From the IMG/VR virus record IMGVR_UViG_3300042541_000539, positions 1 through 63,936 of that record: a DNA stretch of 63,936 bases. One strand, given 5' to 3'. Position numbers and translations under genes: made by a program. Source of the stretch: a virus. The notes below the pieces were generated by a model. The model worked only from the letters and a program-made list of their open reading frames with translations, was not told the origin of the DNA and did not search any database. Below are positions 634 through 63,336 of this stretch, one piece after another (positions within the stretch are counted from its first letter, which is position 1; each line of letters opens with the position of its first letter).

Positions 634-673
634 CATATATATTATCAATTCGCTATCGTGTTTAGATTGTAAA
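634..673 (-). promoter_or_regulatory. Three-part leftward promoter element P1
   Basis: Reading leftward: TTTACA, 6 nt, AACACGA, 8 nt, TGATAATATATATG. Spacing is identical to ten other copies in the window. It lies about 20 nt upstream of the corrected start at 615. Promoter function is inferred from position and repetition. Confidence 0.8.
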
Positions 674-1907: not shown

Positions 1908-1948
1908 ACATTTATATTATCATTAGGTAATCGTATTATTGTTGTAAA
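1908..1948 (-). promoter_or_regulatory. Three-part leftward promoter element P2
   Basis: Leftward: TTTACA, 6 nt, AATACGA, 8 nt, TGATAATATAAATGT. Spacing is identical to the other family members. It precedes the 32-residue gene and the small-gene operon running down to about 760. Confidence 0.8.
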
Positions 1949-2317: not shown

Positions 2318-2357
2318 CATATATATTATCATTTTAGTATCGTATTCGTTTTGTAAG
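2318..2357 (-). promoter_or_regulatory. Three-part leftward promoter element P3
   Basis: Leftward: CTTACA, 6 nt, AATACGA, 8 nt, TGATAATATATATG. Five bases upstream of its -35-like part is the octamer GTATAGCA (2364-2371). Drives the 103-residue gene. Confidence 0.82.
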
Positions 2358-2387: not shown

Positions 2388-2433
2388 GTGACATTAGCTA
2401 ATTAAGTAAATAAGTAGTAGGCTAACGTCGCAC
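2388..2433 (-). terminator. Inverted-repeat hairpin, copy A
   Basis: Arms GTGACATTAGC (2388-2398) and GGCTAACGTCGCAC (2420-2433) pair imperfectly. Read leftward, the hairpin is followed by CTTTTATC, so it may terminate transcripts arriving from the 2579-2803 gene. Related copies are at 2521-2567 and 4448-4494; repetition of the arms suggests more than a generic terminator. Confidence 0.55.
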
Positions 2434-2520: not shown

Positions 2521-2567
2521 GTGTGACACTAGCCTATTAAACTAGAAATAGTAGGCTAATGTCGCAC
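2521..2567 (-). terminator. Inverted-repeat hairpin, copy B
   Basis: Arms GTGACACTAGCCT (2523-2535) and AGGCTAATGTCGCAC (2553-2567) form a stem of about 12 bp. Read leftward, it follows the 2579-2803 gene by 11 nt and is followed by a T-rich stretch, as expected for a terminator. Same repeat family as copies A and C. Confidence 0.6.
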
Positions 2568-3056: not shown

Positions 3057-3097
3057 ACATTTATATTATCATTTGATCGTCGTATTCGTTTTGTAAG
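3057..3097 (-). promoter_or_regulatory. Three-part leftward promoter element P4
   Basis: Leftward: CTTACA, 6 nt, AATACGA, 8 nt, TGATAATATAAATGT. The octamer GTATAGCA (3099-3106) starts immediately upstream of the -35-like part. Confidence 0.82.
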
Positions 3098-3552: not shown

Positions 3553-3593
3553 ACATTTATATTATCATTTGTACTTCGTATTCTTATTGTAAG
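3553..3593 (-). promoter_or_regulatory. Three-part leftward promoter element P5
   Basis: Leftward: CTTACA, 6 nt, AATACGA, 8 nt, TGATAATATAAATGT. Proximal member of a tandem pair; the ~30 bp after the -10-like block are also repeated downstream of P6, so the pair arose by local duplication. Confidence 0.82.
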
Positions 3594-3639: not shown

Positions 3640-3680
3640 ACATTTATATTATCATTTTCCATTCGTGTCGGTCTTGTAAG
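3640..3680 (-). promoter_or_regulatory. Three-part leftward promoter element P6
   Basis: Leftward: CTTACA, 6 nt, GACACGA, 8 nt, TGATAATATAAATGT. Distal member of the tandem pair upstream of the 123-residue gene. TGCTATACGC (3681-3690) abuts its outer end. Confidence 0.8.
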
Positions 3681-3964: not shown

Positions 3965-3983
3965 CTTTGGTATATTTTAGATT

Positions 3984-4023
3984 CATATATATTATCATTA
4001 CTCAGTCGTATTGGTACTGTAAG
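3984..4023 (-). promoter_or_regulatory. Three-part leftward promoter element P7
   Basis: Leftward: CTTACA, 6 nt, AATACGA, 8 nt, TGATAATATATATG. It marks the left boundary of the divergent control region and has two reverse GTATAGCA copies directly upstream. Confidence 0.82.
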
Positions 4024-4046: not shown

Positions 4047-4304
4047 TTCGCGTTGCTACGCTGCGCTCCGCATTATGTCATGATCATATGCATACACCGC
4101 ACATGCCGTGTCATACCATCATACGAATGCCAAACGATTAGACGTACACATCAGCACAGCACGACCACAGCAGGCAGACCACACACACACCGACCTACAC
4201 CGAAAAGGTAAATCCTTTTTTCATGATCCCATATCCCTTGGGGGACCCGGTCAAACCAAACTCGTTTCCGTTGGGGCGCTACGGTTTCAAAATGTATGTG
4301 GAAC

Positions 4305-4380
4305 CCGTTACTTCTTTATTTGTAATGAACTTTTTTTCACGCACTCCGTTGCTTCTATATTTGTAACAAAAATTTTTCAC
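4305..4380 (+). repeat. Two tandem ~36-bp imperfect direct repeats
   Basis: Unit 1 is 4305-4340 and unit 2 is 4345-4380; both read CCGTT(A/G)CTTCT then TATTTGTAA and end in a T-rich tract and CAC. Unit 2 carries TATATTTG, an exact match to the Bacteroidota housekeeping -7 consensus TAnnTTTG; unit 1 has TTTATTTG. They may be tandem host-type promoters or protein-binding units for the late block. Confidence 0.5.
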
Positions 4381-4447: not shown

Positions 4448-4494
4448 GTGACATTAGGTAGTTATATATAATAGTAGTAGGCTAACGTCGCGCT
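4448..4494. repeat. Inverted-repeat element, copy C
   Basis: Arms GTGACATTAGG (4448-4458) and AGGCTAACGTCGCGC (4479-4493) match those of copies A and B. No leftward gene lies upstream of it, so here it is not simply a 3'-end terminator; it sits ~55 nt before the first late gene and could instead be an operator or block antisense transcription. Confidence 0.55.
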
Positions 4495-49745: not shown

Positions 49746-50555
49746 TTATAGTGTTTGTTTTTGAAATGTTCCGTTAACCATTTGGCCATGTCTAGACTTA
49801 ATTACATCATAAGCTGATGTAACGCAGTCTTCAATTTTTAATCCTTCTAATGCGGCTAGATTAGTTAATACAACAACCATATCGCCAATAGCATCAATAA
49901 ACTCTGCTTTGTCATTTTTAAGAATGGCTCTTGCTAATTCGCCAGACTCTTCTAATAACTTTATGTATTGTGTTTTAGTATCGCCAGATTTATATATACC
50001 GCGCTCGTCTGCCCATTTTCTAATTAGATCATATGTGTTAGGATTTTCAGCAACAACAGATTCTGGTTGATTATAATAATCAGTAGCCATTGATCTTTTA
50101 CCTAAAGACTTTGTAAACTCATCCATTGCTTTATTATACACATAAGATCTACTTGGGTTGAACATGGAAGTATTAGCATTTTTAACTACCCACTCAACTA
50201 GATCGTCAGTTAGAACATATGTCCCAAAACTAGTTTGAATTTTAATTCCTTTATTGTCCATTAGATTACCTTTAAGTTTATTTACAGGACAAGGAAAGGT
50301 TGTTGTTTGATCTGTTACATTTAATACCATTTGATTTATTTGTTTTTGAGTTAAATTTTTATAAGATTGTCTATCTTGTTTGTAACCGTAGATAGATTGA
50401 AGTTCTAATTCACGTGATGACGCATAGTCTATATCGTCCGTAGTTTCTAAAACTTCATATTCGTTTTCTTTATAGCCTTGCTCACGAGTAACCCTATTAA
50501 TAAGATTACGCGTAACTCCTATCTTTTTACCAAAAATGTGATATATAAAATACAT
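49746..50555 (-). CDS. MazG-like nucleotide pyrophosphohydrolase fused to a GIY-YIG-like domain
   Basis: 269 residues. N-terminus MYFIYHIFGKKIGVTRNLIN has the GIY-YIG shape (a strand pair with YFIYHI...KIGVT followed by R). The C-terminal ~100 residues (KTQYIKLLEESGELARAILK, EFIDAIGDMVVVLTNLAA) are MazG-like with the EExxE and ExxD metal motifs. MazG hydrolyses (d)NTPs and can remove ppGpp-type or damaged nucleotides. A nuclease-like domain on such an enzyme is unusual. Confidence 0.72.
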   Translation of the reverse strand: MYFIYHIFGKKIGVTRNLINRVTREQGYKENEYEVLETTDDIDYASSRELELQSIYGYKQDRQSYKNLTQKQINQMVLNVTDQTTTFPCPVNKLKGNLMDNKGIKIQTSFGTYVLTDDLVEWVVKNANTSMFNPSRSYVYNKAMDEFTKSLGKRSMATDYYNQPESVVAENPNTYDLIRKWADERGIYKSGDTKTQYIKLLEESGELARAILKNDKAEFIDAIGDMVVVLTNLAALEGLKIEDCVTSAYDVIKSRHGQMVNGTFQKQTL

Positions 50556-50563: not shown

Positions 50564-51331
50564 TTAAATGGCCACTTTTGCTGAAATTACTGGGCCGTGT
50601 TTATAATTTATCAAGGTTAATGCTCCGTTTTCGTAAATGTAGTCTGGAGACTGAAAAGTTTCTTGATCGAGATATTTATGTATAGCATCGCGTTGATTGG
50701 CGTAAATGTGTGCATCAATTATCTGCACGTCTATTCTGTTTGCTTTTAAATCAACCTTGCTTGATACGTATAATAATATTTTAGAGAACAACGCCATGTC
50801 ATAAGGTATACCTAAAAACATATCACCTGATCTTTGTAGCACAAACATATTAAGTTTGTTGTTATCCACAAAGAATTGAAAGTACAAATAACATGGAGGC
50901 AATCGCATTTGATCTAACTGAATAGGATTCCATAAACTTATAATGTGTCTACGGCTGTCTGGATCATCAATTAATTGTTTAATAACTATTTGCATCTGAT
51001 CTATATTTTGATCATTAAAATTGCGCATTTGATGCCCATACACAGGCCCAAGATCACCATTCTCATCTGCCCAAGCATCCCATATCCTTACGCCTGCTTC
51101 TTGGAATCTTTTAATGTTTGTTTCGCCATTTATAAACCATTCAAACTCTGTATCAAAAGTCTTTTGAAACATTTTTCTACCTGTTATTAATGGAAAGCCA
51201 TCATTAAGATTTACACTTAGACTAGCATTGAATATTGAGTTACAGCCAACACCTGTTCTATCCGCTCTTTGTGTATCGGAATTCAGGCACTTGTTAAGTA
51301 ATTCTTTGTATTGTGCTTCGTACTTTGTCAT
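50564..51331 (-). CDS. thyA: Thymidylate synthase (ThyA type)
   Basis: 255 residues, near standard length. RADRTGVG at 22-29, LGPVYGHQMRNF at 94-105, catalytic Cys147 in LPPCYLYFQ, QRSGDMFLGIPYDMA at 166-180 and DAHIYANQ identify the folate-dependent enzyme that makes dTMP from dUMP. It lies upstream of the MazG fusion (8-nt gap) and belongs with the reductase. Confidence 0.95.
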   Translation of the reverse strand: MTKYEAQYKELLNKCLNSDTQRADRTGVGCNSIFNASLSVNLNDGFPLITGRKMFQKTFDTEFEWFINGETNIKRFQEAGVRIWDAWADENGDLGPVYGHQMRNFNDQNIDQMQIVIKQLIDDPDSRRHIISLWNPIQLDQMRLPPCYLYFQFFVDNNKLNMFVLQRSGDMFLGIPYDMALFSKILLYVSSKVDLKANRIDVQIIDAHIYANQRDAIHKYLDQETFQSPDYIYENGALTLINYKHGPVISAKVAI

Positions 51332-51668: not shown

Positions 51669-51776
51669 TTATTCCCACGGCATTTTATCGTTATTGCTGA
51701 CTGCTGGAAAGTGTGGAATAAAACAGCCTGAAGCCGGCTCCCATACAAAATGGCATTCAGCGCCATTCTCTCCAAG
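51669..51776 (-). pseudogene. Duplicated 3' end of the primase-helicase gene
   Basis: The last 35 codons read LGENGAECHFVWEPASGCF...PWE, matching LGENGAEAHFNWDPKSGCF...PWE at the C-terminus of the intact helicase (52690-54399). The open frame extends upstream to 51860, but that part is out-of-frame endonuclease sequence. It begins exactly after the stop of the GIY-YIG gene, so it is a leftover or donor-derived copy of the helicase end. Confidence 0.75.
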
Positions 51777-52689: not shown

Positions 52690-54399
52690 TTATTCCCACG
52701 GTAACTTGTCGTCGCTATTGACTGCTGGATAATGTGGGATAAAACAGCCTGATTTAGGATCCCAATTAAAATGCGCTTCCGCTCCGTTTTCACCAAGCTG
52801 TTGAAACTTACACTTTAATACTTTAACTTTAACAGTTTTGTTTTCATAGTCTCTGTGTACTAATAAACCATGATAAGATGCATCATACCATTCGCCACCG
52901 CCTTTAATATTATACATTGTAGGTTCTTCAATCTTACCGCTACTGTCTTTATACATTTTAGTAGGGTGCGCAACAACCATTACGAGCACATCGTATTTTT
53001 TAGCAAAGATTTCTATTTGACTTAAGTATTCTAATGTATAAACATTAACATCACCGGATGCATCGTTAGATCTTACCTTGTTAAATGGATCAATAACTAA
53101 GCATTTAATTCCTTTACGTTTAACTAGCTCTGCGCCTTTACGTAGTACAGATTCTAATGTATAACGTTCCATGTCGATAAAGAAATAGTTATCATTAACA
53201 TGATCGGCAACTTGATTCCACTTTTCAGTTTTAATATCTTCAACGCCGGGCATACCTTGCCATGTTTTACGCATTAACTTGTGAGCATGCAAATATGTTG
53301 GGTGATTTTCAGGTGATGCATACGCTGTTTTCCAGCCATACTTTTCATTGTATCCAATAACCATTTGATCTACAAAATCAGATTTACCAGAAGATGGTAT
53401 ACCGGTAACAGTAATGAATTGACCAGTGTACGTAGAAAAAATATCATCAAAATTAGACAAGCCAATTTGGAAACCGGGTTTGAAACCATTTCTAACAAAG
53501 TCTGTAACTTCATCTTCAATGTCCCTAAACGTAGTAACGTTTTCAAGCGGCACGGGTTTTGATCTTGATATTCTTTGAGATAATGCTTCTTTACCATACT
53601 TAATTAAATATTCGTTTGCATCTTTGCAATCATCAAAGGTTGCAATGTAACATGTTTCTGATCCTAATCTTCTAACTAACTCAGTTTGCAATGCTTGACC
53701 TGCTGCATCTGAATCAACAGCAATAATGATCTTTGTTTTGTCATCAAAGTAATCAATACAGTTATCTAGATATTCTAAATTGTTTGTGCCTAACGTGGCT
53801 CCATTTGGTACTGAGATTGCGTTTGTGATACCGGCTTCATGCAATGCAAGCACATCCATTTCTCCCTCAACAATAACGCAATATTCAAAACCAACAATAC
53901 TATTAATATTATAAAATACTTTTTCAGCTCCTTTGAATAATTTAAAGTGTTTGTGTCCATCTCTGTATTTTACGTTTATAAGTTGATCGCCAATGAAATA
54001 ATTAAAGTGTATTGCGTTTTCTGTTTTTCCAGTCTGAGGCATAAACTCAGGACCTTCTGTAACTTGTAAGTCTGTTAATGTTTGTTCTGATATTCCTCTA
54101 TTGTTAAACCATTCAACAACTTTTGAAGTTGCAGGAACTAATGTTGATGTTGGTCTTGTATATATTTTTTCACTTGCTCCTTTGCGTTGGTACGTATGCA
54201 ACTGAAATGTCTTGTTACAGTTATGGCATGTACCTATACCGCGATCCCAATCATAAGATGCACACTTTGCTTTTTCATTCTTAGGTTTTCTATCAGGAGA
54301 ACAGATTGGGCATATGCCACTAGTCTTGCCTTCATCTAATTTGTGAATATTAAATGTATCTATTAAGAAACCATTAATTTCGCTTGTTTGTACGGTCAT
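52690..54399 (-). CDS. Primase-helicase (T7 gp4-like)
   Basis: 569 residues. N-terminal zinc motif C30-P-I-C33 ... C58-H-N-C61; TOPRIM primase core with IVEGEMD (E178, E180) and AVDSDAAG (D229, D231); helicase domain with Walker A GIPSSGKS at 333-340 and Walker B CLVIDPFNK near 435. It makes primers and unwinds DNA at the fork. Its C-terminal 35 residues are duplicated at 51669. Without a phage polymerase it presumably loads the host replisome. Confidence 0.92.
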   Translation of the reverse strand: MTVQTSEINGFLIDTFNIHKLDEGKTSGICPICSPDRKPKNEKAKCASYDWDRGIGTCHNCNKTFQLHTYQRKGASEKIYTRPTSTLVPATSKVVEWFNNRGISEQTLTDLQVTEGPEFMPQTGKTENAIHFNYFIGDQLINVKYRDGHKHFKLFKGAEKVFYNINSIVGFEYCVIVEGEMDVLALHEAGITNAISVPNGATLGTNNLEYLDNCIDYFDDKTKIIIAVDSDAAGQALQTELVRRLGSETCYIATFDDCKDANEYLIKYGKEALSQRISRSKPVPLENVTTFRDIEDEVTDFVRNGFKPGFQIGLSNFDDIFSTYTGQFITVTGIPSSGKSDFVDQMVIGYNEKYGWKTAYASPENHPTYLHAHKLMRKTWQGMPGVEDIKTEKWNQVADHVNDNYFFIDMERYTLESVLRKGAELVKRKGIKCLVIDPFNKVRSNDASGDVNVYTLEYLSQIEIFAKKYDVLVMVVAHPTKMYKDSSGKIEEPTMYNIKGGGEWYDASYHGLLVHRDYENKTVKVKVLKCKFQQLGENGAEAHFNWDPKSGCFIPHYPAVNSDDKLPWE

Positions 54400-54781: not shown

Positions 54782-54822
54782 ACATATATATTATCAATAT
54801 ACAATCGTGTTTTGATTGTAAG
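54782..54822 (-). promoter_or_regulatory. Three-part leftward promoter element P9
   Basis: Leftward: CTTACA, 6 nt, AACACGA, 8 nt, TGATAATATATATGT; perfect spacing. It drives endonuclease copy 2 and the helicase gene, and probably the whole downstream operon to 45.3 kb. Confidence 0.82.
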
Positions 54823-55139
54823 ATCATTACTAATTCTAGATAGAAAGACCCCAATAAATGGGGTCTAACTAACTAAGGTGTTATAAGGCAGTTGGGACCG
54901 AAGGCTTGCAACCACACTATATTAAAGCCGATTCTTATTTGTAACTTCTCGAGTAGTGCCGGCTAACGACCTATATTCTATGGCAATGTTTACGTCTAGC
55001 CAGTGTTGACGGGGCTTCACAAATAGTACTTAGCTTGTACGACATATAATCTATTATTAGAATAGTTACAAGCACCCTTTATAATACTGTCCAAACTAAA
55101 TCCTGCTTTCGTTGTCTAGACTTTGTTCTGTATTATATT
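54823..55139 (-). ncRNA. Structured ~300-nt gap, candidate non-coding RNA
   Basis: No open frame of note. Read leftward, it follows the SSB-like gene, contains a possible 7-bp stem GCTTGTA/TACAAGC and an AGCCG/CGGCT pairing, and ends in the hairpin at 54846-54866. It is also richer in GC than its surroundings. It could be a small RNA processed from the SSB transcript, or a 3' UTR. No known RNA family recognised. Confidence 0.4.
54846..54866 (-). terminator. Hairpin terminator
   Basis: Perfect 7-bp stem AGACCCC / GGGGTCT with a 7-nt AT-rich loop, followed leftward by TTTCT. Ends the transcript from the SSB/exonuclease/ERF operon before P9 restarts transcription. Confidence 0.8.
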
Positions 55140-55460
55140 TTAGAACGGGAGATCATCGATCGGAGCCGGTGCCCGTTGTGCAGGAGCTTGTGCTTGTTGA
55201 CCTGAATCAGTTCGGGGTGCAACATCAACATTAGCGCCGTTCGTCCATACCACTTTAACATTTCCAAGGTATACTTTTGCTGCTTTTCCATCTCTCTCTT
55301 CTTTAGATTGTTCAACCATCACTGGTCCTTGATTTCCAAACTGATCCACTTCATCATTGATTGTAACGGTGATGGGCAGGTATTTTCCCTTCTTTCCGTC
55401 AATGATTTTGTGCTTTGGAATCTCATTCAAATTAATACTCATTTTTAAAATACTTGCCAT
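55140..55460 (-). CDS. SSB-like single-stranded DNA-binding protein
   Basis: 106 residues. A beta-rich N-terminal domain (YLPITVTINDEVDQFGNQGP, AKVYLGNVKVVWT) and a Gln/Ala/Pro-rich linker end in DDLPF, the acidic tip by which SSBs recruit partners. The core is not a standard SSB sequence, so it is called from tail, size and the recombination genes upstream (exonuclease, annealing protein). Confidence 0.7.
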   Translation of the reverse strand: MASILKMSINLNEIPKHKIIDGKKGKYLPITVTINDEVDQFGNQGPVMVEQSKEERDGKAAKVYLGNVKVVWTNGANVDVAPRTDSGQQAQAPAQRAPAPIDDLPF

Positions 55461-55477
55461 AATTCTCGTTTTTTGTT

Positions 55478-56212
55478 TTAGTTAAGGGTTTTAGTAATTA
55501 GAAATTGTTGAGGATCAAAATCCTCTGTTTTATAAAATAAATCGTATGCTTCAACTGCTCGCATAACTTTGTCTTCGCCTGTTTGTAAAAATTTATCTGA
55601 ACAATCAAATATACCTATCTGATGCGTTCCTTTATCTATTGCCATAAAAATCATATCATATCCAAACAACTTCTTATAAATATATGCTTGACTATCATAA
55701 TTGTATTTCTTAGCTGAATAAGCAAAGTCCGCAATGTTAGATGTTGTTTTAAGATCTACAATCAATCCTTCGTCGTGGTTTAATATATCTGCTTTGCCTT
55801 TCCACATTGTACCAAATAATTCTACAATGCCAGGAACTTCATAGTCTACATTAAAACCGCGGATAAGATCTTTGCATATATTATTGGCGAGCATCGTATC
55901 TTTCATTAGTTCAATTCGGTCAGCTTCGTGTTGCAGCAGACATATTTCACCTCCAGATGCTTCTTTATATATATTAGTATTTCTAGTGGATGCTTTAATA
56001 ATTTTGTACTTGTGTAGTTTATCAGGTTCAAGAATGGCGGTGTGGAAATAACCGCCAATTACAAAATTAGGATTAGGATCTTGAGGAGCATTCATTAATG
56101 CTGGATTAGTAAGCAACGCAGATATATTTGAGTTACTTAAAAAGTTTTTACCAAACTCGCCATAATAATGCTCATCATTTTTTAACTTCTCTATTATTTC
56201 TTCTTTAGTCAT
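55478..56212 (-). CDS. RecE-type PD-(D/E)xK exonuclease
   Basis: 244 residues. GGYFHTAILEPDKLHKYK and FGTMWKGKADIL, then IVDLKTTSNIADFAYSAKKY (D...D-L-K catalytic motif) and DSQAYIYKKLFG are hallmarks of the RecE/DUF3799 nuclease. Degrades one strand of double-stranded DNA to give tails for the annealing protein encoded 1 nt upstream. Confidence 0.82.
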   Translation of the reverse strand: MTKEEIIEKLKNDEHYYGEFGKNFLSNSNISALLTNPALMNAPQDPNPNFVIGGYFHTAILEPDKLHKYKIIKASTRNTNIYKEASGGEICLLQHEADRIELMKDTMLANNICKDLIRGFNVDYEVPGIVELFGTMWKGKADILNHDEGLIVDLKTTSNIADFAYSAKKYNYDSQAYIYKKLFGYDMIFMAIDKGTHQIGIFDCSDKFLQTGEDKVMRAVEAYDLFYKTEDFDPQQFLITKTLN

Positions 56213-56213
56213 A

Positions 56214-56774
56214 TTAGAGTTTAGCTAGTATTACTTCAGCTTCTGGAGATAATTCGTACTTAGCTTTAATTGTATCAAGTTTACCACCGTTTACTACAAA
56301 TTGCATTGCTTTATCAAAGGCTGCGTCGTTTGGCGTTAATTGAGCTTTAGCAACAGGTTCTGCTTTACCATGATCCGCATCTTGAGTATCATCGATTAAG
56401 AATAGATTACCTAATGCATACTTTTTACCATAACTTGATGCTGATCCAAACTTCTGTGGCATTTGCATACCTTTTTGATCAAGGTCAACGCCGACGATTG
56501 CAGTAGCGTGTATAGCACCAGACGCATCCGATATTGTAGCAATACTACGCATTATAGGGAATAATTGATTTGATTCAATTAGTTCTTCTGTAACAACTAC
56601 TGATACATTATATTTTGTTAAGTAAGGCTTAACAGCTTCTAGTAGATCTTCTGCCGATCTAAAATTGTACTTACCAAAACTATTAAATCTACTTTTCTTA
56701 GCCTTCATTTCTACTTGAATAAGAGCTAACTTTTCATTTAACGTTGGTTCTTTAATTACTTCTTTTTTTTCCAT
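56214..56774 (-). CDS. ERF-family single-strand annealing protein
   Basis: 186 residues. KKSRFNSFGKYNFRSAEDLL, YNVSVVVTEELIE, ATAIVGVDLDQKG, MPQKFGSASSYGKKYALGNL and IDDTQDADHG match the ERF superfamily of phage recombination proteins. Works with the RecE-like exonuclease in recombination-dependent replication or repair. One GTGTATAGCA (56508-56517) is read here in a frame encoding Ala-Ile-His. Confidence 0.88.
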   Translation of the reverse strand: MEKKEVIKEPTLNEKLALIQVEMKAKKSRFNSFGKYNFRSAEDLLEAVKPYLTKYNVSVVVTEELIESNQLFPIMRSIATISDASGAIHATAIVGVDLDQKGMQMPQKFGSASSYGKKYALGNLFLIDDTQDADHGKAEPVAKAQLTPNDAAFDKAMQFVVNGGKLDTIKAKYELSPEAEVILAKL

Positions 56775-56784
56775 ATAATTTGAT

Positions 56785-56830
56785 TTAATTGTTTAGTTTA
56801 TATATTAATATAATTACGTGTTTTGTCAAC
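56785..56830 (-). promoter_or_regulatory. Candidate sigma-70-type promoter for the recombination operon
   Basis: Leftward: TTGACA, 17 nt, AATATA, ending ~10-20 nt before the ERF gene leader. It contains AACACG but not at the spacing of the three-part family, so it may be a second promoter class. It overlaps one arm of the TGTCAACT repeat. Confidence 0.45.
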
Positions 56831-56853
56831 TATTTAGTTCCTTTTAGTTGACA
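56824..56853. repeat. Inverted repeat TGTCAACT / AGTTGACA
   Basis: Perfect 8-nt arms separated by 14 nt, lying between the sigma-factor stop and the ERF gene and overlapping the TTGACA of the candidate promoter. It suits an operator for a dimeric regulator; as an RNA hairpin it lacks a T-run. Confidence 0.5.
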
Positions 56854-56867
56854 TTTTTTATTTTAAC

Positions 56868-57650
56868 CTATAGGTAATCAAAGACTTGAGAGGGGTCTAC
56901 ACTATTGATTAATGTTTGTATTGCTTGCTTTTTTATCTCTGAAATTCTAACATAAGAGCTTGCTCCTTCAAGACCTAGATAGTCTGCTATTTCATTTGCG
57001 GAATGTTTGCCACAATCTAATCCGTAACTTAATCGTAACACATCGGATTCTGTAACTGTTAAATATTTCTGAAACAAACTTAATAAATAAGCATTCATAA
57101 TATCTATATTGTACTCTTTAGATTTATCTTCAAAAATATTGCTCTCAAAATAAGTTGTTCCATCAAAGAAGTTAGTATCGGAACTATCAAAATCTACATC
57201 TAAACTTTGAAATACGCTATTAAAGAACATTTCTACCATTTTAGTATTATCAGGATCTTTACGCATCTCAGTTAACTTATACTCTGGAATACGTATACTA
57301 CCCCTGTTAATGTCTATTGCTCGTCTAATAGCGCCTTTAATTCTTTTAGATAGGAATGATTTTAATGTTGATTCTTGATTATCACTGTCTTTAATTGTAT
57401 CCCATTCTATTTTATCAATTGCTTGAACAAGACCTATTGAGCCATATTGTGTAAGATCTGTAATATCTAGAACCCCACATGCTTGTGTAGTAGTAGAAAA
57501 CTTTCTAGCAATATTCTCGACTAACGGCAGGAATTTAACAATTAGCTTATCTCTAGAATATGAACGAAAGTCATTTGATACACTATCTTTATTTGATTCT
57601 TTAACGTCTTCTTTGTACCTTATGTAATTGGGTAGATTGTAACTTTTCAT
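56868..57650 (-). CDS. Phage sigma-70-family sigma factor
   Basis: 260 residues. Region 2: LVENIARKFS (43-52), then LDITDLTQYGSIGLVQAIDK (61-80) and LKSFLSKRIKGAIRRAID (96-113). Region 3-like: RGSIRIPEYKL. Region 4: LTVTESDVLRLSYGLDCGKH then NEIADYLGLEGASSYVRISE and IKKQAIQTL. It should direct host RNA polymerase to phage promoters; the three-part promoters or the late promoters are candidates. Region 1.1 is absent. Its ATG overlaps the stop of the 49-residue gene upstream. Confidence 0.88.
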   Translation of the reverse strand: MKSYNLPNYIRYKEDVKESNKDSVSNDFRSYSRDKLIVKFLPLVENIARKFSTTTQACGVLDITDLTQYGSIGLVQAIDKIEWDTIKDSDNQESTLKSFLSKRIKGAIRRAIDINRGSIRIPEYKLTEMRKDPDNTKMVEMFFNSVFQSLDVDFDSSDTNFFDGTTYFESNIFEDKSKEYNIDIMNAYLLSLFQKYLTVTESDVLRLSYGLDCGKHSANEIADYLGLEGASSYVRISEIKKQAIQTLINSVDPSQVFDYL

Positions 57651-57796
57651 AAATTTTTGATTATGGTTTTTTTATCTATATATATATCTAATAGTTTTTT
57701 TAGTAAAGTATCTTTTTCAAGTTTATCGTATGAAAAATAATTTATATCAATCCATTCAACAAATTCTTTAATGGCTTTAAGTTCTTTTAGTGTCAT
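57647..57796 (-). CDS. Small helical protein, 49 aa
   Basis: ATG at 57796 (MTLKELKAIKEFVEWIDINY) to TGA at 57647. Both ends overlap neighbours by 4 nt (ATGA), linking the HTH protein gene, this gene and the sigma factor gene. A short regulator or leader of the sigma factor (for example an anti-sigma) is possible but not shown. Confidence 0.65.
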   Translation of the reverse strand: MTLKELKAIKEFVEWIDINYFSYDKLEKDTLLKKLLDIYIDKKTIIKNL

Positions 57797-58416
57797 AAAT
57801 TTTGGTTTAGGATTTCTTTTTCTTTTTTTAGTTCATTACTCATGTTGCGATGTATTGTTCTTGTGGTACAATCAAAGTGTTCAGCAAGGGCTTTAATAGT
57901 TATTTTTTTACCAAGATCATTTGTGTATAGCATGGCATCGTAAATATCTGACTCAGTAACTTTCTTAGTTTTACCAATCATCTGCCCTACTATAGATAAC
58001 TTCTCAGTAAGACTTAAACCGCTATTGTCCTTAAATATAATCTTCCTAGATTTATTATGAGGAGGTGATTCAAGATCTTGTAAAGATACATCGTACATCA
58101 TGCTCTGTAGTAATTGCTCACTAACATTGAATGTTACAAAACCATTATCTTTATTACATATATGCCGCACAGTTGTTTCAAACTCATTCTGGTCCATGTT
58201 TTGATTAAGATACCATATAACATACAAATGCCATTTCAATGCTTTATATGTTGGTATTTTAGCCTTGCTTCTAAATAGCTCATAACATTCTGTTGTACCA
58301 TCTTCGTAGAAGTTACCCCATTCAAATTCAGCAGTTGGTTTATCATTAATCGGTGCTCGTCGGTATATCACTCGTCTTTTGTTTAAATATTCTAGGTTAC
58401 GTTCTCTGTATGACAT
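57793..58416 (-). CDS. HTH DNA-binding protein, possible replication initiator or regulator
   Basis: 207 residues. The C-terminus holds a clear helix-turn-helix: KKITIKALAEHFDCTTRTIHRNM. The N-terminal half (FEWGNFYEDGTTECYELFRS, then IPTYKALKWHLYVIWYL) is unrecognised. It heads the sigma-factor operon under P10, with a ~95-nt leader. One GTGTATAGCA lies inside (57923-57932), encoding Leu-Tyr-Thr. Confidence 0.65.
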   Translation of the reverse strand: MSYRERNLEYLNKRRVIYRRAPINDKPTAEFEWGNFYEDGTTECYELFRSKAKIPTYKALKWHLYVIWYLNQNMDQNEFETTVRHICNKDNGFVTFNVSEQLLQSMMYDVSLQDLESPPHNKSRKIIFKDNSGLSLTEKLSIVGQMIGKTKKVTESDIYDAMLYTNDLGKKITIKALAEHFDCTTRTIHRNMSNELKKEKEILNQNL

Positions 58417-58440
58417 TAGCTTGCTATTTTATTATATTAA

Positions 58441-58510
58441 GGACCTAACGTCACACTTTTAAGGCAACACTCTACTAATTGTTTTTTCCTTCGGATTTTT
58501 TAAACTACGT
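58441..58510 (-). promoter_or_regulatory. 5' leader of the regulator/sigma operon
   Basis: Non-coding leader between P10 and the 57793-58416 gene. It carries GTGTGACGTTAGG, one arm of the inverted-repeat family seen at 2388, 2521 and 4448, but without the partner arm. It may be a half-site for a regulator. Confidence 0.35.
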
Positions 58511-58516
58511 TATTAT

Positions 58517-58557
58517 ATGTTTATATTATCACAAGGCTATCGTGTTAATGCTGTAAG
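58517..58557 (-). promoter_or_regulatory. Three-part leftward promoter element P10
   Basis: Leftward: CTTACA, 6 nt, AACACGA, 8 nt, TGATAATATAAACAT. It abuts the stop of the gene at 58560 and drives the regulator/sigma operon, so the sigma factor may control its own promoter if it reads this class. Confidence 0.8.
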
Positions 58558-58559
58558 AC

Positions 58560-59303
58560 TTATTTCTTTTTAAATTGTTCAAATAAATTTTTAACTCCTT
58601 TGGAATGTGCTAATAAACTATGTTTAAATATAAACTCTCCAAATGCTATCATATCTTCCTCACTATAACTTCTTTCTTGTTGCCATTTAGCACCATCATT
58701 AAGCCCATTAGCATAGGCGTTTAAATCAATTCTATTGTCAACATCTGCTTTTTTCAATAATACTTCTTCAAGTGTTTCTTTTTTAGGAGTATCATCAACC
58801 ATTCTTTTACCCCAAGTTTCAGGATTACCTATTGGAGAATCATCATTGTCAAATCTTTCAGAGTATTTTTCAAGTCTTTGTTTAGGTTCTTCTTTTGGAA
58901 TGATGATTTTGTATTCAAATCTCCATTCATCACGAAGTCTTGTTTTAAATTTAAAAATTTCAACCTCCTCACAACTTGGATTCTTTACAAACCATTCTAA
59001 GAACTCATCATCAATAGATTGTACACCATCTTTGATTAGGTCCTGGTCTGTTGTTAGGATAACTTTTTGACAACCTTTATGTGGTGTATATTCTGCCTTG
59101 AAAATCATATTACAATCTGGTTTCCAAAAGTAATCTCCTTCTTTAATTTCTTCTGAATTAGTGATGTAGGTGTTTTGGGGGTCAAACCCTTCTTCAAAAC
59201 AACCTTCTAAATCAGTAAATGGGTCAAGTATAAAACGTCCTTTAAATCTACATTTAAATAACCTACTTGGTTTATCTGTTGGTAATACGTGTATGTTTTT
59301 CAT
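58560..59303 (-). CDS. Conserved flavobacterial-phage-type protein, 247 aa
   Basis: MKNIHVLPTDKPSRLFKCRF, NTYITNSEEIKEGDYFW, VQSIDDEFLEWFVKNPSCEE and KWQQERSYSEEDMIAFGEFI are phrases common in Bacteroidota phage proteins (from memory), with unknown function. A variable middle links two more conserved ends. Overlaps the upstream Cys-rich gene by 4 nt. Confidence 0.75.
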   Translation of the reverse strand: MKNIHVLPTDKPSRLFKCRFKGRFILDPFTDLEGCFEEGFDPQNTYITNSEEIKEGDYFWKPDCNMIFKAEYTPHKGCQKVILTTDQDLIKDGVQSIDDEFLEWFVKNPSCEEVEIFKFKTRLRDEWRFEYKIIIPKEEPKQRLEKYSERFDNDDSPIGNPETWGKRMVDDTPKKETLEEVLLKKADVDNRIDLNAYANGLNDGAKWQQERSYSEEDMIAFGEFIFKHSLLAHSKGVKNLFEQFKKK

Positions 59304-59626
59304 AATAGTATAGTTATTTTGCGTGTTTCACAACCCATTTTATGAACACCATCTGTTTGATGGCAATACTTACAATAATCTTCTTGAACGCATTTAGGGT
59401 ATGTGCAATAATCTAGATTGCATATTTCTCCGTCGCGTTTAACTCCTCCTAATTTACACTTAGTAGAATCTTTAGAGTTAGGCCAAAAATGAGAACAGTT
59501 TACTTCATCTTCTTCCGGGGAAAAATCCGCATAAGATTGCATGAACTTACTAGGTGTTGCGGTAAACCTATGACAATATTCTTTCGATGGGCATAGTGCA
59601 TTAGAGCACATAGAAATATCAGGCAT
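59300..59626 (-). CDS. Cysteine-rich zinc-binding-type protein, 108 aa
   Basis: Twelve cysteines, including C.NALC...EYC near the start and CTYPKC...YCKYC towards the end; probably binds two to three zinc ions. Similar Cys-rich proteins are common in flavobacterial phages. Role unknown. Confidence 0.65.
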   Translation of the reverse strand: MPDISMCSNALCPSKEYCHRFTATPSKFMQSYADFSPEEDEVNCSHFWPNSKDSTKCKLGGVKRDGEICNLDYCTYPKCVQEDYCKYCHQTDGVHKMGCETRKITILL

Positions 59627-59834
59627 ATTGGTCTAAGTCTATTAATATGTTACCTTCTGTGTCTAACACTTCATGAAAAATAAATGCCTCTGCAGTACGA
59701 CCGTAGGATCCTTGCAACTTCCATGCAACACCAGTTTTTACCATTTCAGAATACATTTCAATTATTCCTTTGTCGTTTAGTTCGCCGGATTCGTATTCCA
59801 TTATTTGATCTAAAAAATCTTTTGTTTGTTTCAT
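59619..59834 (-). CDS. Conserved-looking small phage protein, 71 aa
   Basis: Start chosen at 59834 (MKQTKDFLDQIMEYESGELN), just after the upstream stop at 59839, rather than 59876, which would overlap. NDKGIIEMYSEMVKTGVAWK and LQGSYGRTAEAFI is a recurring phage pattern (from memory) of unknown function. Confidence 0.65.
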   Translation of the reverse strand: MKQTKDFLDQIMEYESGELNDKGIIEMYSEMVKTGVAWKLQGSYGRTAEAFIFHEVLDTEGNILIDLDQYA

Positions 59835-59838
59835 AATT

Positions 59839-60036
59839 TTATTTATTAAATTTTTCGTTGTAATATTCTTCTCCACTTCTATCTAATTCTTCATCCCAAC
59901 CAGAAAAATATGCTTTACTTATCTGTTGCTTTTCCATTTCTTTAGCATTATGAAATACTGCTTCATTATACTCAACATCTTCATTTGATATTGGATTATC
60001 TAATAGGTTTTTATACAACCACTCTACTGCTGTCAT
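59839..60036 (-). CDS. Small phage protein, 65 aa
   Basis: MTAVEWLYKNLLDNPISNED...KEMEKQQISKAYFSGWDE. This pattern is widespread in Bacteroidota phages (from memory) with unknown function. Overlaps the upstream gene by 4 nt. Confidence 0.7.
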   Translation of the reverse strand: MTAVEWLYKNLLDNPISNEDVEYNEAVFHNAKEMEKQQISKAYFSGWDEELDRSGEEYYNEKFNK

Positions 60037-60230
60037 AATTTATTATCTTTTTCTATTAAACTTAATATATAACTGTATACCTCGGCATTGAATTTATCTA
60101 ATTCATTTAATTGTACTTGGCGATCTGGATCAAGTTTCCAATACAAATCGGTGTTTTTAACGTCTAAATTAGCCACAAATAAGCTTGACTCTATTCTTTC
60201 TCTTGCTGCTGTTTTTATTCTGTCTGTCAT
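60033..60230 (-). CDS. Small helical protein, 65 aa
   Basis: Start chosen at 60230 (MTDRIKTAARERIESSLFVA) because it overlaps the upstream stop by 4 nt (ATGA); the frame extends to 60263. No family recognised. Confidence 0.6.
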   Translation of the reverse strand: MTDRIKTAARERIESSLFVANLDVKNTDLYWKLDPDRQVQLNELDKFNAEVYSYILSLIEKDNKL

Positions 60231-60451
60231 AGTTGCTCTATTTCTTGTTTTACTTCTTCCCAATATTCAATAGTCAAATCTGTGTATATTTTAGTATCAA
60301 TTACCACATTATGATTATGATATAATTTACACATATTAATCATCTCATTAACTGCTATTAGAGCGCATTGTCTTGAAAAACTAACGGTGCACATAGGTAT
60401 TAGTCTATAATATAATAACATTAACTCTCTTGCTTTATTGTCCGCGTCCAT
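60227..60451 (-). CDS. Small phage protein, 74 aa
   Basis: NKARELMLLYYRLIPMCTVS and YWEEVKQEIEQL: a helical protein pattern frequent in phage early regions (from memory). Function unknown. Follows the 193-residue gene after 1 nt. Confidence 0.65.
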   Translation of the reverse strand: MDADNKARELMLLYYRLIPMCTVSFSRQCALIAVNEMINMCKLYHNHNVVIDTKIYTDLTIEYWEEVKQEIEQL

Positions 60452-60452
60452 A

Positions 60453-61034
60453 TTAAAAATTGTTTTTTACTGAATTCCATATAATTGCTTGATACTCAAA
60501 ACCTTTTAAGCCTTTAGCTTCTGCTTTGGCTATGGTTAATAATCTAATTTGATCGTATGCACGTCTACCCGGAGAACTTTTAATTGTTTTACCAAAGCAT
60601 GCACGCAAATGCCACACGTCAATTGTAACGTTGCTTTCATCTAAGTGGGCAATGTTTTTTACAAAGTTAAATGTTTTTAAGCTATCATCAGTTATTTTAG
60701 CTTGTTTTTTACCTAATAAGAACGCTTTGCGCTTATTTTTATGGAACGTACAAACTTTAACATCATCAGGCGAACGATTTTCGTGTATAGCACCTAATAC
60801 CGTTACGGTATCTTTGATGTTTTGGGGCCATTTGTTTCGTGGTGACAATGCACTAATAATACTTGCAACAACTTCCGTTGTAGTATTGTATTGCTTAGCT
60901 AGATCCTTACAAATATAATGCGCTTGCTTATACCATGCGATACCATTGTCAATGTCTCGGTCAGTGGCTAACGCAAAGTAATTGTCTAGATTATTGTTTA
61001 CCTCTATTAATTGATCGTCTGTTAATTGTTTCAT
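60453..61034 (-). CDS. Conserved phage protein (DUF7178-like), 193 aa
   Basis: ISALSPRNKWPQNIKDTVTV, then KTFNFVKNIAHLDESNVTID and VWHLRACFG followed by GLKGFEYQAIIWNSVK match a widespread phage family of unknown function (DUF7178-type, from memory). The helical layout and conserved D/W/H spot suggest a helix-hairpin-helix DNA-binding fold. One GTGTATAGCA lies inside (60783-60792), encoding Ala-Ile-His. Confidence 0.75.
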   Translation of the reverse strand: MKQLTDDQLIEVNNNLDNYFALATDRDIDNGIAWYKQAHYICKDLAKQYNTTTEVVASIISALSPRNKWPQNIKDTVTVLGAIHENRSPDDVKVCTFHKNKRKAFLLGKKQAKITDDSLKTFNFVKNIAHLDESNVTIDVWHLRACFGKTIKSSPGRRAYDQIRLLTIAKAEAKGLKGFEYQAIIWNSVKNNF

Positions 61035-61046
61035 AGTTGTTGTTTT

Positions 61047-61087
61047 ACAATTATATTATCATTATTTAATCGTGTTTAGACCGTAAG
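61047..61087 (-). promoter_or_regulatory. Three-part leftward promoter element P11
   Basis: Leftward: CTTACG, 6 nt, AACACGA, 8 nt, TGATAATATAATTGT. It overlaps the 3' end of the small zinc-protein gene and drives the 60.45 kb gene and those beyond. Confidence 0.8.
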
Positions 61088-61202
61088 CAATTAATTTTTT
61101 ATTGTGCTTATGTAAACGATTACCTTCACATACTGGGCATCCGCCATTATTTCTGCAATACTTGGCTACCACTTTTTTTGCTTTTTTAATTGTTCTACTC
61201 AT
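61062..61202 (-). CDS. Small zinc-binding-type protein, 46 aa
   Basis: ATG at 61202: a basic N-terminus (MSRTIKKAKKVVAKYC) followed by CPVCEGNRLHKHNKK, a CxxC...H.H zinc site. The gene's end overlaps promoter P11. Probably a nucleic-acid-binding knuckle; too short for a family call. Confidence 0.65.
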   Translation of the reverse strand: MSRTIKKAKKVVAKYCRNNGGCPVCEGNRLHKHNKKLIAYGLNTIK

Positions 61203-61216
61203 AATGTTTAATTTAG

Positions 61217-61282
61217 TAGTCAGGTAAGGACTCGAACCTTATCCGCTTTATCAGTGCGGTGCTTCCATTCAGCTACCTGACT
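61217..61282 (-). tRNA. Short tRNA-like element, anticodon GAT if functional
   Basis: 66 nt. Acceptor AGTCAGG/CCTGACT, D-arm GCT-GAATGGA-AGC, anticodon arm CCGCA-CTGATAA-AGCGG (GAT, Ile, with one A-A mismatch at the loop) and T-arm TAAGG-TTCGAGT-CCTTA. The variable loop is a single base, much shorter than the usual 4-5. It shares its acceptor stem with the element at 681-754. A decayed or unusual tRNA. Confidence 0.55.
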
Positions 61283-61581
61283 TATAATTAAATTTTTCAA
61301 AGTTACTGACTAATCTTGTATTGCTACTATAGTAACGGACTTTATTAATTTAACTACTTGCTGAGAACTCATTTGTGTTGTGTGGAGATTAAACTTACCC
61401 TACAAGTAGTCTTTAATTTTCCCACCTACCAAACTCTATTCCTTTCTCAAGGGAACAACACATCTACCATTACTGATAGTATCTTTATGTAAACAGACTA
61501 CTATAGCCAAGTCTTTTAACGCAGACCTCATTAAGGCAGGCTTTTTGTTTACAAAGGTATTCAATGTTTAACCTTGTTGGA
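61283..61581 (-). other. Non-coding region between tRNA-like elements
   Basis: About 300 nt. One possible tiny leftward frame (61310-61372, 20 residues starting MSSQQVVKLIK) is too short to call. There is a short stem AAGGCAGGC-type repeat near 61535. No clear RNA family or protein gene. Confidence 0.4.
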
Positions 61582-61638
61582 ACTAGAGGGGGATTCGAAC
61601 CCCCTTAACCCGTCGGCCGCTTGCCCAGCGCTAGTTCT
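61581..61638 (-). tRNA. tRNA-like fragment lacking an anticodon arm
   Basis: 58 nt. Perfect acceptor GAACTAG/CTAGTTC, D-arm-like CGC-TGGGCAA-GCG and T-arm GGGGG-TTCGAAT-CCCCC, but only ~12 nt where the anticodon arm should be. Either a deleted tRNA or a tRNA mimic used, for example, as an RNA processing or attachment signal. Confidence 0.5.
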
Positions 61639-61680
61639 TAGTTGATCCGCAAGCCGGTTACTACTTTATTTGCGTTTCGA

Positions 61681-61908
61681 TTACAACCAACCATCACTGC
61701 TTGGACAATGTTTACGTAATCCCGAAATAATCAACATGCTGCTGTGTCTTTTAATTCTGCCGCAGCGTGTGCAAGAACCGACCGGGGACGCCCCGATCCC
61801 ATTAACCATTTGCTCCCAGGAATGCCTGCCCGCTTTGTTACCTGCTAGCTTAGGCGCGTTCTTCGTCTCAAATGGGTTTGCCACTTCTCGTTTAGCTTTA
61901 ACGAGCAA
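61681..61908 (-). CDS. Small Cys-containing protein, 75 aa
   Basis: Basic N-terminal half, then HSWEQMVNGIGASPVGSCTR followed by CGRIKRH and GLRKHCPSSDGWL: a likely zinc site (CxxC...H...C). The composition is more GC-rich than its neighbours. No family recognised. Confidence 0.55.
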   Translation of the reverse strand: MLVKAKREVANPFETKNAPKLAGNKAGRHSWEQMVNGIGASPVGSCTRCGRIKRHSSMLIISGLRKHCPSSDGWL

Positions 61909-61930
61909 TCACGCCGTGGCTCGCTGTTTT

Positions 61931-61940
61931 GTGTATAGCA
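61931..61940 (+). repeat. GTGTATAGCA motif overlapping a gene end
   Basis: Intergenic copy of the GTATAGCA family between the Cys protein and the KTSC protein, touching the start of the KTSC gene's 3' end at 61941. Confidence 0.55.
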
Positions 61941-62165
61941 CTACGCTTTCTTGAATCGATAGAAAGCTAAAACGTATTTGTTAAGGAATTTACCTTTAGA
62001 TGGCGCTTCACGTAAACCATTCATTACATGGTTAGGCACGTTAAAGTACTCATACTCTCTGCCGTTCTTAAATAGAACAAACAATTTTTCTACGTTTGGA
62101 TAGTAAGACACTTCTGAAATAGCACTACTGTCAACCTCTAATTTCTCGATTAGATTTACATTCAT
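61941..62165 (-). CDS. KTSC-domain protein
   Basis: 74 residues covering the whole KTSC domain: VDSSAISEVSYYPNVEKLFV, FKNGREYEYFNVPNHVMNGL, REAPSKGKFLNKYVLAFYRF. The domain occurs alone or fused to lysyl-tRNA synthetase-like proteins and in phages; a nucleic-acid-binding role has been suggested for the family, but is unproven. Confidence 0.85.
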   Translation of the reverse strand: MNVNLIEKLEVDSSAISEVSYYPNVEKLFVLFKNGREYEYFNVPNHVMNGLREAPSKGKFLNKYVLAFYRFKKA

Positions 62166-62171
62166 ATATAA

Positions 62172-62609
62172 TTAATTTAATTGGTTACTTACTAATTGTC
62201 TAGCAGCCTGTTTAGCGTACTCTGATTTCTGCGCTTCAGTACCCGCTGTTTGTGGCGAAGGTAAATATATATTACGTTCATTGTTACAATCATAGATACA
62301 CTTTTGATTGTTAATAATGCCGGTATAAATAGCACGTTCAAGATCTTGTAGGTGTACAGATACGTCTAAGTAAACAATATCGTTATTTAGCCAGCCACCT
62401 AAGTATCTTGTTTCGCCCCATAGATTATCCATGTTCTTAAGCATAAAGGCTTTAATGGTTTGATTAGATACTTTATTTACATTGAATTGTTCTTCAAAGC
62501 CTAGTATACTAACCATATAGCCATCGCTAGGGTTTGCTTTGCCAGTATTTAGATTATAACTTACACCGCCTTCTAAAATAATTTCGTCTAATACTTTCTT
62601 TAAGTTCAT
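62172..62609 (-). CDS. Hypothetical phage protein, 145 aa
   Basis: GGVSYNLNTGKANPSDGYMV, LWGETRYLGGWLNNDIVYLD and VHLQDLERAIYTGIINNQKC are phrases seen in several phage early regions (from memory). No enzyme motif. Gap to the KTSC gene is 6 nt. Confidence 0.7.
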   Translation of the reverse strand: MNLKKVLDEIILEGGVSYNLNTGKANPSDGYMVSILGFEEQFNVNKVSNQTIKAFMLKNMDNLWGETRYLGGWLNNDIVYLDVSVHLQDLERAIYTGIINNQKCIYDCNNERNIYLPSPQTAGTEAQKSEYAKQAARQLVSNQLN

Positions 62610-62629
62610 ATTTATATATTTAAAGTTAA

Positions 62630-62875
62630 TTAATCTAATAATTCCATGTAAGCATTACTGTTTACTTCCGCGAACCAATATCTAGCGCGATCAAAATCTT
62701 TATGGTATTTACCACTATAAGCACAGCCTATAATAAAATCATATATACTTAATTCTATACTATTTAATTCAGCACTTGCTCTAGAGAATGGATTTGTAAC
62801 AATGCCTCCAGCAGGATATATTTCGCCAGTAAACCACTTAGGTACTTCAGTATTACTATTTTTTATTTTAGCCAT
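62630..62875 (-). CDS. Conserved-looking phage protein, 81 aa
   Basis: VPKWFTGEIYPAGGIVTNPF, ELNSIELSIYDFIIGCAYSG, ARYWFAEVNSNAYMELLD: a recognisable small family of tailed phages (from memory) with unknown function. Confidence 0.75.
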   Translation of the reverse strand: MAKIKNSNTEVPKWFTGEIYPAGGIVTNPFSRASAELNSIELSIYDFIIGCAYSGKYHKDFDRARYWFAEVNSNAYMELLD

Positions 62876-62876
62876 A

Positions 62877-63275
62877 TTATTCAGGATTAGCGATTATAAA
62901 TTTACCAAAGTGAGTTTGAAATTGATCAAGTAATATATCGTGAAGTTCTTCAGTTATATTATCTGTAAGCACGTCAATATTTTCAATCTCAATTTTATTT
63001 TCATAACTAATACTGAACTCAGCAGAACCGGTATCGTATACTTCAATATTGCCATTACATATAGATCGTTCAAGATTTAGGTTAACATCAGAAGCAAATG
63101 CTTGAAATTGATCCTCGGTTAAGCCAACGGTAGGTTTTAATTCGCTTGCTTCGTTTAGCACTTGAGTTCGTAATGTTACAAGTAAAGATACTACATCATC
63201 TTTGGTATAGATACTTGGGAATGCATCATTTACTCTAACTACTTCTTGTTCAAATAGGTCATTTATTTTATCCAT
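62877..63275 (-). CDS. Hypothetical protein, 132 aa
   Basis: Acidic, helical N-terminal half (FEQEVVRVNDAFPSIYTKDD), then a beta-strand-rich end. No family recognised. First gene under promoter P12, 1 nt from the next gene. Confidence 0.65.
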   Translation of the reverse strand: MDKINDLFEQEVVRVNDAFPSIYTKDDVVSLLVTLRTQVLNEASELKPTVGLTEDQFQAFASDVNLNLERSICNGNIEVYDTGSAEFSISYENKIEIENIDVLTDNITEELHDILLDQFQTHFGKFIIANPE

Positions 63276-63295
63276 TTTATTAAATTTTATTGGTT

Positions 63296-63336
63296 ACATT
63301 TATATTATCATTTATGCATCGTATTCAGACTGTAAG
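63296..63336 (-). promoter_or_regulatory. Three-part leftward promoter element P12
   Basis: Leftward: CTTACA, 6 nt, AATACGA, 8 nt, TGATAATATAAATGT; the cleanest copy. GTGTATAGCA lies 34 nt upstream of it (63370-63379). Drives the 62.9-61.9 kb genes. Confidence 0.85.

What the first reader, a model, noticed from the sequence alone, without database searches (positions are those of the whole stretch)
56868..57650. Phage sigma factor as a possible reader of the novel promoters
The genome encodes a sigma-70-type factor with regions 2 to 4, and its operon is itself preceded by promoter P10 of the three-part class. A self-reinforcing circuit would follow if the factor reads these promoters. Alternatively it reads the late promoters and the host factor reads the early ones.
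Basis: inference. Interest (0 to 1): 0.7.

Follow-up and report, generated by a model that had tools for sequence, protein, structure and literature searches.

The report
Phage sigma factor with own promoters
This uncultured virus of Bacteroidota bacteria carries its own RNA-polymerase specificity factor, and comparison with well over a hundred related viruses indicates that this factor reads a distinctive family of viral promoters that drives the replication half of the genome.

Summary
ORF 56868-57650(-) is a sigma-70-family factor with solid region 2, region 4 present and region 3 degenerate. A promoter of the three-part class (58520-58556) stands before its operon HTH gene - 49 aa ORF - sigma.

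The class is far beyond chance. There are 11 sites at one fixed spacing, all leftward, and a matrix built from them finds none in reversed sequence. The sigma has at least 221 relatives in IMG/VR. In 124 sigma loci the class occurs 560 times on the sigma strand, 3 times on the other strand, and 3 times in reversed controls.

Eleven related genomes without the sigma have no site. Within each sigma-bearing genome the promoters change together (z = 57 and 23 at two positions), as expected if one phage-encoded protein reads them. The sites lack the Bacteroidota host consensus.

I conclude that the phage sigma reads this class (about 0.85). The self-reinforcing loop is not general: only 5 of 111 relatives have such a promoter just upstream. 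The late-promoter alternative is disfavoured.

The neighbouring HTH protein is probably not the promoter reader; it is tied to an inverted repeat over its own start codon. All evidence is comparative; there is no wet-lab evidence.

The parts
56868..57650 (-). Sigma-70-family factor, 260 aa: region 2 (about 36-116), degenerate region 3 (to 147), disordered linker 149-180, region 4 (about 178-250)
57647..57796 (-). 49 aa ORF between HTH and sigma genes, overlapping both by 4 nt; not conserved (2 of 124 loci)
57793..58416 (-). 207 aa protein with C-terminal HTH, conserved partner of the sigma gene (107 of 124 loci); probable regulator of the inverted repeat, not the promoter reader
58520..58556 (-). 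P10, three-part promoter before the HTH-sigma operon: box 1 58551-58556, box 2 58540-58546, -10 GATAAT 58525-58530
58412..58452 (-). Inverted repeat GACGTTAG-N25-CTAATGTC; right arm contains the ATG of the HTH gene
636..672 (-). three-part promoter
1911..1947 (-). three-part promoter
2320..2356 (-). three-part promoter
3060..3096 (-). three-part promoter
3556..3592 (-). three-part promoter
3643..3679 (-). three-part promoter
3986..4022 (-). three-part promoter, the most upstream on the leftward arm
54785..54821 (-). three-part promoter upstream of the 54416-54766 gene and the primase/helicase gene
61050..61086 (-). three-part promoter
63299..63335 (-). three-part promoter
2390..2429 (.). further copy of the inverted repeat
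2525..2563 (.). further copy of the inverted repeat
4450..4489 (.). further copy of the inverted repeat, between the late-direction start region and the first rightward gene (4550)
4301..4370 (+). two tandem host-like elements (CGTTACTTCTTTATTTGTAAT, CGTTGCTTCTATATTTGTAAC) in the late direction; candidates for host-read promoters, no proper -33 TTTG

Best explanation
The gene product is an alternative sigma factor. It joins the host (Bacteroidota) core RNA polymerase and directs it to the phage's own promoter class on the leftward arm (small early ORFs, recombination, replication and nucleotide-metabolism genes). Region 2 reads the nearly invariant -10, nGATAATA (invariance shown; reading inferred). 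Region 4, perhaps with help, reads the upstream part TTACARACTNAAYACGA, roughly -38 to -22 (position shown; reader inferred). In most relatives the sigma is not directly behind its own promoter class, so the loop seen here is probably an amplifier added in this lineage. Initial synthesis by host polymerase, read-through or virion delivery is unresolved. The adjacent HTH protein most likely controls its own expression and the rightward arm through the inverted repeat. It does not appear to read the three-part promoters.
For: (1) In 124 sigma-selected loci, 560 class sites lie on the sigma strand, 3 on the other strand, 3 in reversed controls. The matrix from the window's 11 sites alone already finds sites in most of the 80 closest loci, with none on the opposite strand or in controls. 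(2) Of 33 records selected by the promoter, all nine of at least 57 kb carry the sigma. Shorter ones may be fragments; one of them (53 kb) ends just after the HTH gene. (3) Eleven related genomes without the sigma have zero sites: MW202828 (terminase 65% identical, complete), elemoE, phi19:3, phi40:1 and Gundel_1 (last three in part), and six IMG/VR records of 55-62 kb. (4) Concerted change within genomes: agreement at position 26 is 0.79 against 0.29 shuffled (z 57), at position 3 0.93 against 0.75 (z 23), over 95 genomes and 722 sites. Examples: CGATAAT, GGATAAT and AGATAATA clades, TTTGCAA boxes in L070/L159, ACGGACTTA and GGTTRACACGA classes. (5) The sites lack the Bacteroidota consensus TTTG/TAHHTTTG (PMC6847099). 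(6) The profile's best solved match is FliA, whose -10 GCCGATAA (PMC2859248) shares GATAA. The phage keeps RIKGAI-like residues and an invariant Arg109, aligned gaplessly by eye to E. coli RpoD T440, which by general knowledge contacts -12. In L177-L179, where -10 is TATAATA, neighbours K105 and I108 become L and A.
Against: No biochemistry or transcript data. On the terminase tree sigma presence needs only two changes, so presence/absence is nearly a single evolutionary event. A mutual-information scan of sigma columns against promoter letters was no stronger than for neighbouring genes. Some upstream boxes change (TTACAA to TTTGCAA or ACGGACTTA) with little change in the predicted region-4 recognition helix, so who reads the upstream part is not settled. 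If every leftward promoter needs the sigma, its first synthesis needs another route.
Confidence: 0.85

Rival explanations
1. The host primary sigma reads the three-part class as early promoters, and the phage sigma reads late promoters.
For: In the window clade TATA(A/T)ATG partly resembles TAnnTTTG. Early genes need some host-read promoter. The sigma gene sits in the same arm as the promoters.
Against: The resemblance is not kept in other clades, the -33 TTTG is missing, and the near-invariant host T at -7 is A. Promoters change together per phage lineage. Sigma-less relatives lack the class. No class site on the late strand in the window.
Confidence: 0.06
2. The promoters are read by the phage sigma together with the neighbouring HTH protein, which binds the upstream box 1, like an activator of middle promoters.
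For: The HTH gene is the constant partner of sigma. The only clade that lacks it (L048, L064, L072, L074, L189, L190; L188 has too few sites) has box 1 changed to TCGAA.
Against: Its recognition helix is unchanged between phages with quite different upstream boxes. The HTH is tied instead to the inverted repeat (172 of 184 loci at its start; 0 of 7 HTH-less loci). Promoters persist without the gene. Only one clade shows the box-1 change.
Confidence: 0.2
3. The three-part elements are replication or repressor sites rather than promoters.
For: They are repeated and intergenic.
Against: Almost all lie on one strand at a promoter-like distance before start codons, with a -10-like core and a purine about 7 nt downstream.
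Confidence: 0.04

Closest known systems
phiEco32 gp36 and phage 7-11 gp47 sigma factors with their promoters (PMC8948821)
   Same: Podovirus-encoded sigma that, with host core polymerase, reads a phage-only promoter class; the class diverges between relatives (tAATGTAtA vs GTAAtg-16-aCTA).
   Different: No detectable homology in the phage search (one search lists other records only); host is Bacteroidota; the class here sits on the early/replication arm rather than before late genes; sites have an extra conserved block inside the -35/-10 spacer.
FliA / sigma-28 family
   Same: Best solved-structure match of the profile (1rp3, E 4.8e-9); FliA -10 GCCGATAA shares GATAA.
   Different: Well below the NCBIfam FliA/WhiG cut-off (37 vs 189.6 bits); different -35 region; region 3 degenerate.
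Bacteroidota primary sigma (sigma-ABfr) and its promoters TTTG/TAHHTTTG (PMC6847099)
   Same: Probable host factor for other phage promoters.
   Different: The three-part class lacks both elements.
T4 middle promoters (MotA box plus extended -10), from general knowledge
   Same: An upstream box plus -10, with a non-standard -35.
   Different: A dedicated sigma is present; MotA and AsiA homologues were not specifically searched for.

Membership tests
sigma-70 family factor | sigma region 2 (core binding, -10 recognition) | tested here: met
   Pfam r2 above cut-off; TIGR02937 above cut-off; PDB profile hits
sigma-70 family factor | region 4 HTH | tested here: met
   Pfam r4 only 0.12, but TIGR02937 and PHROG 351 matches span it and the model has it with pLDDT about 80-90
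sigma-70 family factor | binds core RNA polymerase and directs initiation | not testable with these tools
   needs purified proteins
phiEco32-type phage sigma | sequence homology to phi32_gp36 | tested here: not met
   tblastn against 50,697 phage records at E<=1e-3: 6 hits, none phiEco32-like
phiEco32-type phage sigma | reads a phage-specific promoter class unlike that of the host | tested here: inconclusive
   comparative evidence only
FliA/sigma-28 | score over family cut-off | tested here: not met
   TIGR02479 37 bits vs 189.6
Bacteroidota sigma-ABfr promoter | TTTG at -33 and TAHHTTTG at -7 | tested here: not met
   site alignments; host pattern not enriched on the sigma strand, 16 vs 25 reversed
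Sigma-autoregulated operon (self-reinforcing loop) | own-class promoter directly upstream of the sigma operon | tested here: inconclusive
   present in this window at 58520-58556; only 5 of 111 relatives within 320 bp
MotA-type activated middle promoter | phage activator binding the upstream box | tested here: inconclusive
   HTH neighbour considered; evidence mixed

The most novel reading that the evidence does not exclude
A phage sigma of a large uncultured Bacteroidota podovirus group recognises a promoter with a third conserved block inside the spacer (AAYACGA at about -28 to -22; box 1 and box 2 form a TACRA direct repeat exactly 11 bp apart), a recognition mode not seen in characterised sigma-70 promoters. 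With the adjacent HTH autoregulator it forms a two-protein switch between the leftward and rightward arms.
Probability: 0.35. Interest if true: 0.75.

Novelty: new variant of a known kind. Interest (0 to 1): 0.62.

Why it matters
Promoter control in Bacteroidota phages is hardly known: a full-text search for phage-encoded sigma factor, promoter and Bacteroidetes found one overview of jumbo phages. Here well over a hundred natural sigma/promoter sets, with the promoters rewritten in concert in each lineage, offer a rare natural experiment on how sigma specificity evolves. They would also supply orthogonal sigma/promoter pairs for Bacteroidota, whose polymerase does not use the usual promoters. 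The sets make the question of who reads the upstream and spacer elements directly testable.

Tried and rejected
HTH neighbour as a sigma-4-like second reader: profile comparison gave probability 0.4%, and Foldseek found no match at E<=0.001.

HTH neighbour as reader of box 1: suggested by the HTH-less TCGAA clade, then weakened by unchanged recognition helices and by the link to the inverted repeat.

Region-4 Ser-to-Gly change as the cause of TCGAA: L189 and L190 have TCGAA without it.

Residue-level covariation (mutual information) of sigma with promoter letters: not specific. A thymidylate synthase and other neighbours scored as high, so no residue claim rests on it.

Prophages or host copies: the scan of 84,980 genomes found only short MAG contigs, probably misbinned phage, and two weak 24% Pelagibacter hits.

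Host-type promoter before the HTH-sigma genes: 1 of 109 upstream stretches, so the primary promoter of sigma stays unknown.

Earlier reading of the -10 as extended TG-n-TAATAT: dropped, because GATAATA is what stays invariant across clades.

Full report
WHAT IS THERE. The window is an entire IMG/VR virus record. ORF 56868-57650(-) encodes a 260-residue sigma-70-family factor: region 2 is clear, region 4 is recognisable, region 3 is degenerate, and residues 149-180 are predicted disordered. It is the last of three overlapping leftward genes: HTH protein 57793-58416, 49-residue ORF 57647-57796, sigma. P10 lies at 58520-58556, upstream of the HTH gene.

THE PROMOTER CLASS. Eleven sites share (C)TTACA-N6-AYACGA-N8-TGATAATATA with identical spacing, all on the minus strand. 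A matrix built from them finds these 11 and nothing else in the window or in its reversed sequence. They lie at 636-4022 and 54785-63335. If the record is a cut of a circular map, as the continuous leftward strand bias suggests, this is one leftward arm; the rightward structural arm (4.5-45 kb) has none. The divergent region lies at about 4.0-4.5 kb.

RELATIVES. The sigma has at least 221 relatives in viral contigs, of which 80 were fetched (56-95% identity), but no close relative among 50,697 phage records. An exact form of the promoter occurs in 61 stretches of viral contigs. Applied to 124 sigma-selected loci, a refined matrix gives 560 sites on the sigma strand, 3 on the other strand and 3 in reversed controls. 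Records chosen by the promoter that are at least 57 kb long all carry the sigma (9 of 9). The terminase (PHROG 6681) is 45% identical to that of Flavobacterium elemo phages and 31-38% to those of Cellulophaga and Tenacibaculum phages, so a Bacteroidota host is likely.

CONTROL: RELATIVES WITHOUT THE SIGMA. MW202828 (terminase 65% identical, complete), elemoE, parts of phi19:3, phi40:1 and Gundel_1, and six IMG/VR records of 55-62 kb lack the sigma and have no site of the class. Forty of 40 sigma-bearing records tested have the same terminase. On the terminase tree, however, the sigma state needs only two changes, so presence/absence alone is weak independent evidence.

CONCERTED CHANGE. This is the strongest argument. 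Each phage lineage has its own dialect, shared by its separate promoters: the letter before GATAATA is T, C, G or A; box 1 is TTACAA, TTTGCAA or TTGCAG; one clade has TCGAA; another has ACGGACTTA at the normal -35 place without box 2; another has GGTTRACACGA; L177-L179 have TATAATA. Over 95 genomes and 722 sites, within-genome agreement at position 26 is 0.79 against 0.29 after shuffling (z 57), and at position 3 0.93 against 0.75 (z 23). Independent drift of separate sites cannot do this. A shared, lineage-specific reader can, and the host factor is not specific to phage lineage. The core GATAATA is near invariant, as is sigma Arg109 at the position aligned with E. coli RpoD T440 (alignment by eye; contact from general knowledge). 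FliA, the nearest solved relative, reads GCCGATAA (PMC2859248).

NOT HOST PROMOTERS. Flavobacterium promoters are TTTG / TAHHTTTG with T-12, A-11, T-8, T-7, T-6 and G-5 nearly invariant (PMC6847099). The class has no TTTG at -33. Its partial likeness at TATAWATG in the window clade is not kept elsewhere.

THE LOOP. P10 makes a loop possible here and in L002. Among 111 non-redundant relatives only 5 have a class site within 320 bp upstream of the HTH gene and 21 within 700 bp; 25 of 179 loci have one between the HTH gene and sigma. In most relatives the HTH-sigma pair directly follows another coding region and is presumably read from farther upstream. A host-type promoter was found before it in only 1 of 109 cases. 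The route of first sigma synthesis is therefore unexplained.

THE HTH PARTNER. It is almost always adjacent to sigma. I first suspected it as reader of box 1, because the HTH-less clade has TCGAA there. But an inverted repeat GACRATAG-N24-25-CTAATGTC overlaps its start codon in 172 of 184 loci. It occurs in 181 of 190 HTH-bearing loci, in none of 7 HTH-less loci, and 327 times against 13 in reversed sequence. Counting only copies away from the HTH start, 66 of 98 HTH-bearing against 0 of 7 HTH-less loci have one (Fisher p = 7e-4; the seven may be one clade). The simplest reading is self-control and control of a few other regions through this repeat, including 4450-4489 between the late-direction start region and the first rightward gene. 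DNA operator or RNA hairpin cannot be told apart here.

UPSTREAM READER. Box 1 and box 2 contain TACRA repeats 11 bp apart; ACGGACTTA aligns with the middle of the element at the canonical -35 place. Region 4 of sigma is the default reader, but region-4 helices do not track all box changes and mutual information was uninformative. This part is inference.

COMPARISON. It works like phiEco32 gp36 and 7-11 gp47 (PMC8948821), where a podovirus sigma reads phage-only promoters that differ between relatives, but it is not a detectable homologue of those proteins and the promoters lie on the early/replication arm. I therefore call it a new variant of a known kind.

Noticed in passing
58412-58452, 4450-4489, 2390-2429, 2525-2563: Inverted repeat GACRTTAG-N23-25-CTAAYGTC; one copy covers the start codon of the HTH gene, the others are intergenic. 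Conserved with the HTH gene across the group and absent from HTH-less relatives.
   Followed up: partly
4301-4370 (+): Two tandem CGTTRCTTCTWTATTTGTAAY elements in the late direction, partly conserved in L116, L124, L131, L125 and L009; they resemble the Bacteroidota -7 element without a proper -33.
   Followed up: partly
4020-4090, and upstream of promoters in many relatives (e.g. L104, L083, L030): GC-rich repeats built on GTATAGCA / TGCTATACGCG just upstream of several three-part promoters; role unknown (terminator or recombination?).
   Followed up: no
12413-13957 (+) and 17619-18227 (+): The phage encodes a GroEL-like chaperonin (Pfam Cpn60) and a GroES-like co-chaperonin (PHROG 13932); related phages also have them.
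   Followed up: no
46480-48342 (-), 50564-51331 (-), 49746-50555 (-): Nucleotide metabolism set: ribonucleotide reductase with weak B12-type insertion-domain match, thymidylate synthase, MazG.
   Followed up: no
61217-61282 (-) and 681-754 (-): Two tRNA matches by Rfam (47.5 and 42.3 bits) that ARAGORN did not report.
   Followed up: no
51669-51776 and 52690-52797: 108-nt direct repeat, 74% identical: the end of the primase/helicase gene seems duplicated as a separate 63-aa ORF next to a GIY-YIG-like gene, as seen around homing endonucleases.
   Followed up: no
L048, L064, L072, L074, L188, L189, L190: Seven records, including a 62 kb and a 69 kb one, keep the sigma and promoters but lack the HTH gene; box 1 is TCGAA in those with enough sites. 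No replacement regulator was recognised.
   Followed up: partly
L030 (contig of 129,537 bases): Contig about twice the usual genome length of 60-68 kb; possibly an assembly concatemer.
   Followed up: no
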